Source: an uncultured Desulfatiglans sp.
GTDB lineage: Bacteria > Desulfobacterota > DSM-4660 > Desulfatiglandales > Desulfatiglandaceae
Direction of reading: 5' to 3'
DNA length: 64,000 nucleotides
Assembly (NCBI GenBank): GCA_900498135.1
Contig: LR026961.1
Coordinates: forward strand, 2,216,693 to 2,280,692
Shown piece by piece: positions 4,878 through 63,603 of the stretch. The position numbers and the translations under genes are program-made. The notes under the pieces are model-generated. The model was not told where the DNA came from, did no database searches, and saw only the letters and a list, made by a program, of their open reading frames with translations. Position 1 is the first letter of the stretch. Each line of letters opens with the position of its first letter.

Positions 4878-5738
4878 TCTTCAATCCTCCTCAAATTACG
4901 TGAAAAGTGAAAAATCCTCCCAAGTGTGCATCTCAGCCACAAACGTCGGATCAAAGGCAGCGAGATTCAACTGCCTGCCAGTTGCGGTGCACACCCTTCG
5001 TGGTCAGACAAATCAGCGCATCGAGCGTTACAGCTACGCCGCGAGGCCAACCACTCCCCTCGAGCGGCTGAAGCACATGCAAAATGAAGCTTCAAAGCTA
5101 ACAGTTTCCATCTGGAAATGGTCTTTTTGGCCCATCACGGCGTCAATCTGCACATTTGCTTGTGCGGCGACCTGCAGGTCGCCTCCGCGCAAACGCTTGA
5201 TTTCCTGGAAATTGACTAAAAACCCTCATTTCCGAATCAGAAACTGAGTCCTAACACGGAATCATTTCCGGATGGATACTGAATACGAATCCATAGGCCT
5301 CAGACCAAAAACCCCGCCTGTCATCAAGCGGCGACCGGACTAACGGGCTGCAACTCCTAACCTTCACCTTTGCTTCTACCATAAGGCTCTTGCCTTTTCA
5401 AGCGCATAATGCCAATATGCAAAATAAGGCCGGTGTCGGGGATCGGTCGCTTCTGGCCCTTCGTACTTGCGTTGCCCCGGTTCCCCGCACGGTGATATCC
5501 GGACCTGGGACGGCCAAACGGGCGGGTCTGCCGGATTGTGCCTTTAGCGAAAACACGGCTCACGCGGTTTTCGGCCGATCTGAAAGGTTTCATGGCGCGA
5601 CTGTCCGGCGGTCTTTCCCGACGGTTAATGGAGGGGCAACATTAGAGGTATTCTGTGAAAACCGCCGATTTTTGGTGTTCGAAAGAGCTAGCGCCATAAA
5701 AAGGGGGAAATTTGTCGGTTTTTTCTGCTTTATCGGGT
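4878..5738. other. Gene-free stretch holding one dispersed repeat copy
   Basis: No convincing gene is present. Short open frames on both strands have no ribosome-binding site, and some overlap the repeat at 5104-5244. A solo end-like sequence (ATTTCCGGATGGATA) lies near 5263-5278, just outside the repeat. The rest holds nothing I recognise. Confidence 0.6.
5104..5244 (+). repeat. Dispersed structured repeat, copy 1 (short form, no module)
   Basis: This 141-bp copy begins GTTTCCATCTGGAAATGG and ends CATTTCCGAATCAGAAAC, so the ends are inverted repeats. Inside are CTTTTTGGCCCAT, a CACATTTGCTTGTGC segment, the perfect 16-bp palindrome GCGACCTGCAGGTCGC, then CGCGCAAACGCTTGATTTCC and AAAACCCTCATTTCC. 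The two halves fold onto each other as one long imperfect hairpin. It shares every block with the six other copies in this window. Confidence 0.9.
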
Positions 5739-6272: not shown

Positions 6273-6373
6273 GTTATTTGAGTGGATCGCTCTCCGCAGC
6301 GTGGAGGCACAGGCCCTTGTGCGAATTTGAGTTTCAGCTCGAGCAAGTGACCGATCTTCAAGGAGGATAGGAG

Positions 6374-7567
<1,194 letters not shown>

Positions 7568-7582
7568 GGAGAGACTTGGGGC

Positions 7583-10511: not shown

Positions 10512-10705
10512 GTTTGCAATCCGGAAATGAGGATTTTTCTTCACACCCTTCGACTGCTCAGTCCCACCGCTTCGCGGCGGGTCGCGGTTTGGCCGATACA
10601 TTGGAAATCAAGCGTTTGCGCGGAGGCGACCTGCAGGTCGGCGCAGAAGCAAACGTGCAGATCGACGCCGAGATTGGCCAAAAAGACCACTTCCGGATTG
10701 GAAAC
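10512..10705 (-). repeat. Dispersed structured repeat, copy 2 (one hairpin module)
   Basis: A 194-bp copy in reverse orientation, with ends GTTTGCAATCCGGAAATGAG and CCGGATTGGAAAC. It carries one module (CTTCACACCCTTCGACTGCT, then CCCACCGCTTCGCGGCGGG) and the palindromic core GCGACCTGCAGGTCG. A further GGGAAATCATTTCCGG inverted repeat lies just outside at about 10718-10733. It lies inside the ribosomal operon, between rplA and the L10 leader, so it is probably transcribed. Confidence 0.9.
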
Positions 10706-21489: not shown

Positions 21490-21579
21490 TTGCCCCAGGG
21501 AAGAAGCCCCGAAGGAAACGGATTGCGTGTCTCCGTGAAGCGATGGCGCACTCGGAGGGACTATCAAGGAGGATAGGAG

Positions 21580-22773
<1,194 letters not shown>

Positions 22774-22784
22774 GGAATAAGCGA

Positions 22785-39460: not shown

Positions 39461-40444
39461 TGTTTGCCGCATAGCCTTTTTAGGGACAACCAAGAATTCT
39501 TCCCGGTGACCCAGGTTTGCAATTCATATTTCGGTGAGGGACCTTATGCGGAATGGCCATTATCCATTAGATCCATCCGGCAATGGTATTTTTGGCCGAT
39601 TTTGGCGTCAGTCTGCACGTTTGCTTGTGCGGCGACCACCAGGTGGTCTCCGCGCAAACGCTTGATTTCCTAGATATTGGCCAAAAATCCTCATTTCCGG
39701 ATTGGAACCTTTGCCGGGCCGGATGCTCTTTTTCGGGTGGACATCGATTAGATGGCCGATGTCGTGTCTAAATGGCCCGATCAGGCTGCGGAAGAGTATC
39801 CATCTGCTGTATTTCGCCTGTCGCGTGTCACCGCAGCACAGCTGAATGTGCATTTCCTTCAGGAAAATTTCGCAAATCTTGTATCTGCTCAATTTGCAAC
39901 ACGCGGTTGTCTTCTGAAATAGTCCCAGATGAATAGTTCCGGGCCAAGAGGCCTTTGCCAAGTCGTTGATGTTCCAATCCGCCGCAGTCCTTTCCCGAAC
40001 CGCCGAAAGTCATCTAATACCCAGCTTGGTCCCATTCGAAAAGAATCTCTTCTTCTCGCTCCGTTCGGGGGCCGGGGCACCCCGCCTCGCAACTGTTCCC
40101 GGTCTGTTCAGTCTCAAAAAAAACGCGTTGATTATGAAGAGAAAGCTTGTACATCACTGGAGAAGCAAGCGTCCAGAAAGACTCTGCTATGGCAAAGAAT
40201 GAAGAGTTCCGGATGGAAAGGAAGCCGCCCCTATTCCGATCGAAAAGGTCTTCAAGGGAAGTCGATCTCGAGCAAATAGCAAGGACTTCAAGAGTCATCC
40301 TGCCTTTGGAGACATAAAATCGGTCGAAGATCACAAGAGACTGTGCGTGTCATGTGAGGCCCGGCCGTGGTTTGTACGATCAACAGCGTAATAAGTCTCT
40401 GATTTATAGACCGATATCATTTTTGCAGCCAATCTGTCACCAGT
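39461..40444. other. Gene-free stretch after pyrC with one repeat copy
   Basis: Apart from the repeat at 39570-39708 I see no gene. Open frames on both strands are short, lack ribosome-binding sites and show no family motif. GTTCCGGATGGAAAGG near 40207 resembles a decayed repeat end. From about 40370 the base composition becomes AT-richer towards the pilin gene. Confidence 0.5.
39570..39708 (+). repeat. Dispersed structured repeat, copy 3 (short form)
   Basis: A 139-bp copy in the same orientation as copy 1, without a module. The core here is GACCACCAGGTGGTC: both arms differ from the GACCTGCAGGTC core in step, so pairing is kept. Outer segments ATTTTTGGCCGAT and GATATTGGCCAAAAAT pair, and the right end is CATTTCCGGATTGGAAC. 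The left end is degraded. Confidence 0.88.
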
Positions 40445-49701: not shown

Positions 49702-49946
49702 GTTTCCAATCCGAAAATGAGGATTTTTCTTCATACGCTGTGCGTGCTCAGTCCCACCCCTTGGGGGTGGGTCCCGGTTCCTTCACACCCTTCGGGTGCT
49801 CATTCCCACCGCTTCGCAGCAGGTGCCGACTTGGCTAATACTTAGAAAATCAGGCGATTGCGTGGAGGCGACCTGCAGGTCGCCGCACAAGCAAACGTGC
49901 AGATTGACGGCTGGATTGGCCTAAAGGACCATTTCCGGATGGCACC
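49702..49946 (-). repeat. Dispersed structured repeat, copy 4 (two hairpin modules)
   Basis: A 245-bp copy in reverse orientation, with ends GTTTCCAATCCGAAAATGAG and CCATTTCCGGATGGCAC. Two modules lie in tandem: ACGCTGTGCGTGCTCAG with CCCACCCCTTGGGGGTGGG, then CACCCTTCGGGTGCTCA with CCCACCGCTTCGCAGCAGG. The core is the perfect GCGACCTGCAGGTCGC palindrome, as in copy 1. Confidence 0.9.
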
Positions 49947-50100: not shown

Positions 50101-50293
50101 GTTTCCAATCCGAAAAAGAGATTTTTTCTTCACACTCCTCGGGTGCGAAGTCCTGCCTCTGCGAGGCGGGTTGTGGTTTGTACATATGAAGGAAATCAAG
50201 CGTTTGCCCAGAGGCGGCCGATGGGGCGCGCCACACAGTCAGATCTGCAGATTGACGCCGAGATCGGCAAAATGGCCCTTTCCGGATGAAAAC
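50101..50293 (-). repeat. Dispersed structured repeat, copy 5 (one module, degraded core)
   Basis: A 193-bp reverse-orientation copy with ends GTTTCCAATCCGAAAAAGAG and CCCTTTCCGGATGAAAAC. One module is present (CCTGCCTCTGCGAGGCGGG, both arms changed in step). The central palindrome has decayed to a GGCGGCCGATGGGGCGCGCC-like segment, making this the most diverged copy. Confidence 0.8.
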
Positions 50294-60509: not shown

Positions 60510-61319
60510 TGGATGCCTCCGAAAACAAAAAAATGGTCATTGGGAATGGAAAATTGCAGTGCGCTTCGGCATCGATCCACAACGCCGCTCTTCCTTTTGA
60601 AGAGCTTCCGATTGAAGGCAATCTATCAGAGACGCTCTTCTCTGTAAAGAAGGGGCGTCAGCGAACCGATATTTCTTCCAATAAGCAGGTTTCCACCCGG
60701 AAAGGGTCTTTTCGGCCAATCTCGGCTTCAATCTGCAGGTTTGCTTGTGCATGGCGACCACCAGGCCGCCTCCGCACGCATGATTTCCTCGATATCGACC
60801 AAACTGGAATCCGTCGCGGCGGGGGGACCAAGCACGCGCAGCGTGTAAAAAAACCGGGAACCGCGGTGAACCGGTGGGACTGGGTACCCGCGGGGTGTGA
60901 AGAAACCGGGTCCCGCCTCGCAGGGGTGGGACTGAGCACCCGAAGGGTGTAAAGAAAAATCCTCGTTTCCGGATGGGGAACTGGATTCTACCGGGAGATC
61001 TATTTTGGCTGGACACCAGTCCATAAATGATCGGAGCCGTTTTCTTCCTCCTGAGAAACCGAATAGGAACCAAAAAAATCAGCTGGGTTCCGATGTTTCT
61101 GGAATCGGAATTACATCTTGCTGGCGGTTGTGAAATCAGATATCTTGAAAAGAAATGCCCCGGTGGTGAAAGGCCTTTCCGGAATCCTGCTCATGCCTCG
61201 GAGGCATCCGTGATTCCAGGACCTCGAAGGGGTTTTGTTTTTTTCGCCCCTGAAGGAGATACGGCGCTCCAACGCAACGATGGGGAATGATTTACAATCT
61301 GACGAAGGAGAATAAGTGC
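60510..61319. other. Divergent intergenic region with repeat copy 6
   Basis: This 810-base region between the divergent tupA and parvulin genes contains the largest repeat copy (60689-60981). The rest has no supported gene, and open frames inside the repeat are repeat-derived. Promoters for both flanking genes must lie here or just outside, but no strong hexamer pair stood out. Confidence 0.6.
60689..60981 (+). repeat. Dispersed structured repeat, copy 6 (three hairpin modules)
   Basis: The longest copy, 293 bp, in forward orientation, with ends GTTTCCACCCGGAAAGGG and CCGGATGGGGAAC. Three tandem modules lie in its right arm, with stems built on CACGCGCAGCGTG, TACCCGCGGGGTG and CACCCGAAGGGTG; the three read the same shape with different bases. 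The core GGCGACCACCAGGCCGCC is partly decayed. The right flank (GGATTCTACCGGGA) matches the flank of copy 4 in reverse. Confidence 0.88.
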
Positions 61320-62957: not shown

Positions 62958-63045
62958 GGAGGGATGGCCGAGTGGTTTAAGGCGGCGGTCTTGAAAACCG
63001 CTGTCCCGAAAGGGGCCGTGGGTTCGAATCCTACTCCCTCCGCCA
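62958..63045 (+). tRNA. tRNA-Ser (anticodon TGA)
   Basis: A class II tRNA with acceptor arms GGAGGGA/TCCCTCC, anticodon stem GCGGT/ACCGC with loop CTTGAAA (TGA), a long variable arm, GTTCGAATC T-loop and encoded CCA. Confidence 0.97.
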
Positions 63046-63100
63046 CTCCTTCCTGGCAACGATCGGTGCGGCCTTTGCTATCGAGGCGGCACGGACACAC

Positions 63101-63194
63101 GGAGAGATGGCCGAGTCGGCTGAAGGCGCTCGCCTGCTAAGCGAGTGTGGGGTGTCAAGCCTCACCGAGGGTTCGAATCCCTCTCTCTCCGCCA
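63101..63194 (+). tRNA. tRNA-Ser (anticodon GCT)
   Basis: A class II tRNA with acceptor arms GGAGAGA/TCTCTCC, anticodon loop CTGCTAA (GCT), long variable arm, GTTCGAATC T-loop and encoded CCA. It lies 55 bases after the other tRNA-Ser and is followed by a terminator, so the two form a small unit. Confidence 0.97.
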
Positions 63195-63235: not shown

Positions 63236-63331
63236 GTGCGATTTTTATTCCATAGCGCCTCCGGTGTGAGGGCTTTTGCTTCGAAATGGCTGTAATTGGT
63301 CTCCATGCGGAAATACTGTTTTGACGCAATA

Positions 63332-63576
63332 GTTTCCAGTCCGGAAATGGGGATTTTTCTTTACACCCTTCGGATGCTCAGTTTCACCCCTTTGGGGCGG
63401 GTCGCGGTTTCTTCACACCCTTCGGATGCTCAGTCTCACCCCCTGGGGACGGGTCCCGGTTTGACTAAAATTGAGAAAATCAAACGGTTGTGCGGAGGAG
63501 ACCTGGTGGTTTCCGCACGAGCAAGTGCACCGATTGACGCAGAGATGGGGTGAAAAGACCATTTCCGGAAGGAAAC
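63332..63576 (-). repeat. Dispersed structured repeat, copy 7 (two hairpin modules)
   Basis: A 245-bp reverse-orientation copy with ends GTTTCCAGTCCGGAAATGGG and CCATTTCCGGAAGGAAAC. Two modules lie in tandem: CACCCTTCGGATGCTCAG with CACCCCTTTGGGGCGGG, then CACCCTTCGGATGCTCAG with CACCCCCTGGGGACGGG. The core is GGAGACCTGGTGGTTTCC, the ACCACC-type seen in copy 3. Confidence 0.9.
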
Positions 63577-63603
63577 CTGCTGGTCTGACAGTGTAAAATG
63601 GAA

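What the first reader, a model, noticed from the sequence alone, without database searches (positions are those of the whole stretch)
60810..60965. Zero to three tandem double-hairpin modules inside one arm of the repeat
Copies differ in length because of inserted units of about 52 bp: none in copies 1 and 3, one in 2 and 5, two in 4 and 7, three in 6. Each unit has a first small hairpin (usually CACCC-TTCG-GGGTG type) and a second (CCCACCCC/GGGGTGGG type). Stems vary in step: CACCC..GGGTG becomes CACGC..GCGTG, and CCCACCGC..GCGGCGGG or CCTGCCTC..GAGGCGGG replace the second stem. Repeated gain and loss of a structured module in a dispersed repeat is unusual and suggests the module has its own role, such as transcription stop, RNase shielding or protein binding.
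Basis: partly seen in the sequence, partly recalled or inferred. Interest (0 to 1): 0.6.

Follow-up and report, generated by a model that had tools for sequence, protein, structure and literature searches.

The report
Double-hairpin inserts nested in a MITE
The extra 52-base units are copies of a tiny double-hairpin DNA element, itself apparently mobile in related sulfate-reducer-type bacteria, that has lodged next to a run of A's inside a larger miniature transposon and rides along with it in zero to three copies.

Summary
The window has seven copies of a dispersed repeat carrying 0, 1, 0, 2, 1, 3 and 2 units of 52 bp, all at one point of one arm. A 1.2-Mb sample of the genome has 143 copies and 88 units (about 570 and 350 genome-wide).

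The repeat is a MITE: terminal inverted repeats, 6-7 bp target duplications, empty sites in a 94%-identical congener, and the same ends as an ISNCY transposon in this genome.

The unit is a separate entity: a double hairpin, AAACCGGG-hp1-ACTGAG-hp2-GAAG, with compensatory stem changes. It recurs in many uncultured Desulfobacterota, alone, in tandem arrays of up to at least five, and at four different points (both strands) of homologous MITEs, always just before two or more A's. Removing it restores the empty MITE. It is best read as a miniature hairpin element that inserted into MITEs repeatedly. Each unit recreates its own target, which explains the arrays.

Unit number differs at 6 of 21 clean orthologous sites. 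No transposase was found linked to it. Transcription stop, RNA shielding and protein binding gained no support. The closest working analogues are the GC clusters of yeast mitochondria. Who moves it is unknown.

The parts
60689..61016 (+). Copy 6: whole MITE copy (left TIR GTTTCCACCCGG..., right end ...GGCTGGACAC) carrying three units
   Evidence: sequence, alignment; orthologous copy with three units in congener G001
60697..60802 (+). Copy 6: near-palindromic MITE core
   Evidence: nhmmer E 1.4e-21
60807..60853 (+). Copy 6, double-hairpin unit 1 (most diverged)
   Evidence: nhmmer E 3.6e-6
60855..60905 (+). Copy 6, double-hairpin unit 2
   Evidence: nhmmer E 2.7e-8
60907..60957 (+). Copy 6, double-hairpin unit 3
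   Evidence: nhmmer E 1e-14
5113..5219 (+). Copy 1 core, no unit
10589..10696 (-). Copy 2 core
10536..10585 (-). Copy 2, single unit
   Evidence: nhmmer E 1.1e-13
39577..39684 (+). Copy 3 core, no unit
49831..49938 (-). Copy 4 core; whole copy absent from the orthologous site in G001
49726..49828 (-). Copy 4, two units (49778-49828 and 49726-49776)
   Evidence: nhmmer E 3.9e-11 and 1.2e-12
50178..50285 (-). Copy 5 core; shared with G001, one unit in both
50125..50171 (-). Copy 5, single unit
   Evidence: nhmmer E 2.2e-8
63461..63568 (-). Copy 7 core; no match in the congener's C9 at this point
63356..63458 (-). Copy 7, two units (63408-63458 and 63356-63405)
   Evidence: nhmmer E 7.9e-12 and 1.1e-11

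Best explanation
The unit is a miniature mobile element in its own right: a roughly 50-nt double hairpin of the form AAACCGGG-hairpin 1-ACTGAG-hairpin 2-GAAG that inserts directly 5' of a run of A's in a fixed orientation. In the ancestor of this genus it landed once, or very few times, in an A5 run of one arm of a MITE whose ends match an ISNCY-family transposon. Since then it has travelled as a passenger of that MITE. Its number (0-3) drifts by tandem gain and loss: either further insertion at the AAA that every unit carries, or unequal recombination and conversion between units and between the several hundred MITE copies. Shown: one family, conserved two-hairpin fold, fixed junctions, several independent insertion sites in other genera, variation in number between orthologues, and movement of unit-bearing MITEs. 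Inferred: that mobility is DNA-level (ssDNA hairpins with GNA loops) and which process changes the number. Unknown: the enzyme that moves the unit.
For: Family: covariance model R1 finds it in 16 of 46 genomes of the family, and a consensus pattern finds it in 18 stretches of uncultured Deltaproteobacteria/Desulfobacteraceae MAGs, one of them a bin labelled archaeon. Independent insertion: in homologous MITEs the joints map to MITE positions 26 (-), 100 (-), 113 (+, this genus) and 131 (+), each immediately 5' of AA/AAA on the unit's strand, and the joined flanks match the empty MITE. Stand-alone and tandem copies occur in unrelated intergenic sites (L047, L135, L150; arrays L152, L242, L257); a tandem pair at one non-MITE site is not seen in two congeners. 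Number varies at 6 of 21 clean orthologous sites, e.g. 0 v 2 in a core that is 93% identical. A MITE carrying one unit sits at a site that is empty in G001, with target duplication CTAAGGA. Hairpin loops are GNA in 27/34 and 33/35 units of the first sample, and 21/21 and 23/24 in a partly overlapping second set. Autonomous partner of the MITE: 1,693 bp, duplication TAAATA, same TIR, transposase matching NF033593 (ISNCY) at 1.7e-131.
Against: No transposase is linked: 50 Y1-transposase regions carry no adjoining full unit. No site was found that holds a unit in one strain and is exactly empty at base resolution in another outside a MITE; the congeneric sites are too diverged. In this genus nearly every unit found sits at the same MITE position or beside MITE remnants, so current activity outside the MITE is not shown. 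GNA loops are less regular in relatives (17 of 30 for hairpin 1). The A-run blurs the junction, so a 0-3 nt target duplication cannot be told from none.
Confidence: 0.66

Rival explanations
1. Every unit in a MITE arm is a separate, site-specific insertion at the A-run, and zero-unit copies arise by precise excision, as in single-strand transposition of the IS200/IS605 type. Tandem arrays are successive insertions at the target each unit recreates.
For: Invariant junctions, fixed orientation to the A-run, units of different subtype side by side in one array, weak link between MITE lineage and unit number, GNA loops of the kind that give very stable DNA hairpins (the stability is my own knowledge).
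Against: Two-unit arrays often have the same order of subtypes (first GCGAAGC, last CCGCAGG stem), which points to copying of a ready-made pair. No full unit near Y1 transposases. G018, with 22 units, has no Y1 match at E<=1e-8. No replichore bias (19 v 30 elements).
Confidence: 0.22
2. The unit is merely an internal tandem repeat of this MITE, with number changing by slippage, unequal crossing-over and gene conversion between MITE copies; it was never mobile.
For: Fixed position in this genus, homologous flanks shared by hundreds of copies, tandem arrays of whole cores as well.
Against: The same unit at other MITE positions, on the other strand and outside MITEs in other genera.
Confidence: 0.1
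3. The unit is a functional RNA or DNA site (transcription stop, RNase shield, protein-binding module) gained and lost under selection.
For: Stem pairing is kept by compensatory change.
Against: No T-run after either hairpin on either strand; terminator scan shows none on the units. No concentration downstream of genes; copy 6 lies between divergent genes. No Rfam family. Pairing is also expected if the fold is needed for mobility.
Confidence: 0.07

Closest known systems
GC clusters of yeast mitochondrial DNA (e.g. GC42; PMC4478555, which lists Weiller et al. 1989 on target sites and tandem arrays)
   Same: About 40-50 nt, GC-rich, hairpin-forming, at conserved short target motifs, in tandem arrays, merged or stand-alone at the same homologous site, no known enzyme.
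   Different: Mitochondria, not bacteria; short AG or ACT duplications rather than an A-run; no sequence relation claimed; not described as nested in a DNA transposon.
Repetitive hairpin-forming / double-hairpin elements of sponge and fungal mitochondria (PMC2800124)
   Same: Two short hairpins, tandem insertion, compensatory stem changes, dispersed in intergenic DNA.
   Different: Organellar; different sequences; not tied to one A-run site in a MITE.
REP / REPIN repeats and RAYT transposases (PMC3733652, PMC8266576)
   Same: Small palindromic, high copy, intergenic, possibly moved as ssDNA hairpins.
   Different: No GTAG or CGTC tag in the consensus, two hairpins in direct order, no RAYT linked.
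PATEs: ends-only derivatives of IS200/IS605 (PMC7290912)
   Same: Left hairpin plus right hairpin with nothing between, fixed target, no clear target duplication.
   Different: No parental IS200/IS605 with these ends was found.
ISNCY-family transposon and its MITE (NF033593)
   Same: The carrier repeat has the TIR and 6-bp duplication of the 1.7-kb ISNCY element in this genome.
   Different: This is the carrier; the unit itself has no TIR and is not part of the IS.

Membership tests
MITE of an ISNCY transposon (the carrier repeat) | Terminal inverted repeats shared with an autonomous element | tested here: met
   GTTTCCATCCGGAAA at both ends of the 1,693-bp element and at its other copies; same TIR in MITE copies
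MITE of an ISNCY transposon (the carrier repeat) | Target-site duplication and empty sites | tested here: met
   GAATTC and CTAAGGA against empty sites in G001; TAAATA for the autonomous copy
MITE of an ISNCY transposon (the carrier repeat) | Transposase of the family in the genome | tested here: met
   NF033593 at 1.7e-131; three copies in own genome, one with a stop
REP/REPIN (unit) | GTAG or CGTC tag at the foot of the palindrome | tested here: not met
   Absent from the consensus of 45 units
REP/REPIN (unit) | Associated RAYT (Y1) transposase flanked by the repeat | tested here: not met
   No unit at 50 Y1 or RAYT-like regions, except one partial 29-nt hit in L193
IS200/IS605 PATE (unit) | Ends identical to a resident IS200/IS605 | tested here: not met
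   No unit at the Y1 loci examined, including IS200-like L175 of this genome; not every Y1 copy was examined
IS200/IS605 PATE (unit) | Insertion 3' of a fixed short motif without target duplication | tested here: inconclusive
   Fixed A-run, but A's hide whether 0-3 nt are duplicated
Intrinsic terminator (unit) | GC hairpin followed by a T-run | tested here: not met
   sequence of all units
Known Rfam RNA family (unit) | Match at gathering score | tested here: not met
Mobile GC cluster / double-hairpin element (works like) | Same unit with and without insertion at homologous sites | tested here: met
   Four MITE sites, joined flanks match empty copies; 0 v 2 units at orthologues

The most novel reading that the evidence does not exclude
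A previously undescribed bacterial class of enzyme-orphan, 50-nt double-hairpin mobile elements that insert next to A-runs in one orientation, build their own tandem arrays by recreating the target, and hitch-hike inside MITEs: a bacterial counterpart of yeast mitochondrial GC clusters.
Probability: 0.4. Interest if true: 0.7.

Novelty: new variant of a known kind. Interest (0 to 1): 0.52.

Why it matters
Very small hairpin elements with no known enzyme are an old puzzle in mitochondria and in REP-rich bacteria. Here is a bacterial family with known empty and filled sites, a fixed target, a growing tandem array and a carrier transposon whose transposase can be named. That makes the question 'what moves a 50-nt hairpin' testable, and shows a parasite-of-a-parasite arrangement at very small scale.

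Tried and rejected
IS200/IS605 or RAYT as the mobiliser: searched in 80 genomes and tested at 50 loci, no link. Replication-strand bias as a sign of ssDNA transposition: none significant. Terminator reading. In-gene insertion like Rickettsia palindromic elements: units are mostly intergenic. Replacement of whole elements by conversion as the cause of number differences: core identity is no lower in differing pairs (86%) than in equal pairs (85%). Presence in phages, plasmids and viral contigs: none. A precise empty non-MITE site in G009-type repeats: pattern not found. Tandem neighbours made several orthologue comparisons ambiguous and these were left out of the 21.

Full report
OBSERVATION. 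The seven copies in the window align as one repeat with 0, 1, 0, 2, 1, 3 and 2 inserted units. The units of copy 6 score E 3.6e-6 to 1e-14 against a profile built from a sample of the genome. In a sample of 1,203,308 bases of the 4.80-Mb genome there are 143 elements and 88 units. Of 100 full-length elements 60, 27, 11 and 2 carry 0, 1, 2 and 3 units. Extrapolated, the genome holds about 570 elements and 350 units; a covariance-model search of the whole genome listed 144 units with capped scoring.

STRUCTURE OF THE UNIT. Forty-five distinct units align over 51 columns without internal gaps. Two hairpins (8 and 5 pairs, three-base loops) have 93.2% of cells paired; 36 cells change on both sides against 15.5 in shuffles, and sliding the partners destroys the pairing. 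Two pairs (12-18 and 34-40) flip GC/CG in about a third of units and carry most of the signal, so part of it reflects two old alleles of each hairpin. Loops are GNA in nearly all cases: hairpin 1 27/34 and 21/21, hairpin 2 33/35 and 23/24 in two partly overlapping sets. From my own knowledge, d(GCGNAGC)-type loops form unusually stable hairpins in DNA, and only the strand as written has them; this is a hint, not proof, that the fold matters as single-stranded DNA. In relatives the loops are less uniform.

THE CARRIER IS A MITE. Complete copies read GTTTCCATCCGGAAATGG...CATTTCCGGATGGAAAC with 6-7 bp flanking duplications. Copies are missing from orthologous sites in a congener (G001, about 94% identical), leaving a single copy of GAATTC or, with one mismatch, CTAAGGA; window copy 4 is one of the missing ones. 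At position 2,892,411-2,894,104 of the genome lies a 1,693-bp element with the same terminal repeat, a TAAATA duplication and a 455-aa transposase matching the ISNCY model NF033593 at 1.7e-131; there are two further copies. The MITE is therefore most simply a non-autonomous relative of this ISNCY element; transposition by that enzyme is inferred.

THE UNIT IS A SEPARATE ENTITY. Relatives in the same order carry the MITE without units, or with units elsewhere. Joining the flanks of units from different genera and aligning them to an empty MITE places the insertions at MITE positions 26 and 100 on one strand, and 113 and 131 on the other, in each case immediately 5' of two or more A's on the unit's strand. 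One site-100 lineage has CTT in place of the first AAA. Units also stand alone between genes and form tandem arrays outside MITEs. A pattern scan of 84,980 species found them only in uncultured Deltaproteobacteria or Desulfobacteraceae bins and one bin labelled archaeon; none were seen in phages, plasmids or viral contigs. At one non-MITE site a tandem pair is not seen in the two congeners, though the spacer is too diverged to give the exact joint.

GAIN AND LOSS. Over about 400 kb of synteny, 21 element pairs are clean; 15 have equal and 6 unequal unit numbers. Some of the six also carry neighbouring truncations; the clearest is 0 v 2 units in cores 93% identical. Core identity is the same in equal and unequal pairs (85% and 86%), so wholesale replacement of the element is not needed to explain them. 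The three units of copy 6 and the one of copy 5 are shared by both species, so change is slow enough for arrays to be inherited. MITE core sequence predicts the unit class only weakly. Two-unit arrays often have the same order of subtypes, which suggests that ready-made arrays are copied with the MITE; a unit-bearing MITE is indeed a recent insertion at one site.

MECHANISM. Junctions never varied in the copies of this genome that were tested: A5 when empty, A3 to the left, A5 to the right, A3 between units. A unit AAACCGGG...GAAG placed 5' of an A-run yields all of these and recreates its own target, which explains arrays. Whether arrays grow by new insertions or by unequal recombination is not settled; I favour passenger status plus recombination in this genus, with true mobility shown by the distribution in other genera. 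The enzyme is unknown: Y1 transposases are common in the order but none of 50 regions examined carries a full unit.

RIVAL FUNCTIONS. The units are not followed by T-runs, no terminator-like site falls on them in copy 6, they are not enriched downstream of genes, and there is no Rfam match. Conservation of pairing is equally expected if the fold serves mobility.

VERDICT. It works like the GC clusters of yeast mitochondria, and fails the tested hallmarks of REPs.

Noticed in passing
L063 12411-14104 (genome 2892411-2894104): Autonomous ISNCY-family element (1,693 bp, TSD TAAATA, 455-aa transposase) with the MITE's terminal repeats, close to a MITE copy; two more copies at 2157540 (one stop) and 1500303.
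   Followed up: yes
L083 15765-16350 (genome about 3015765-3016350): Head-to-tail array of MITE cores spaced 142 bp, with a unit only in the last core; similar tandem cores in L066, L074, L076.
   Followed up: partly
window 6358-7570 and 21564-22776: 1.2-kb repeat, 99.8% identical, each with a 397-aa ORF; looks like a recent insertion sequence pair.
   Followed up: no
G041 loci L144, L214, L217, L226-L239: One MAG has at least 42 units, in two types with the same 5' half but different 3' halves (GCGAAGAA and GAGGACAAA); many lie at contig ends, as if arrays break the assembly.
   Followed up: partly
L138, L139, L140, L151, L159, L222: The G005-type lineage has CTT instead of AAA at the 5' end of the unit, so that CTTC could pair with the terminal GAAG.
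   Followed up: no
L242, L152, L257: Tandem arrays of three to five units outside any MITE, with period 47-61 bp and hairpin 2 varying most.
   Followed up: no
window 5099-5234 and 63331-63581: MITE copies 1 and 7 lie next to tRNA genes (5785 onward; 62958-63191).
   Followed up: no
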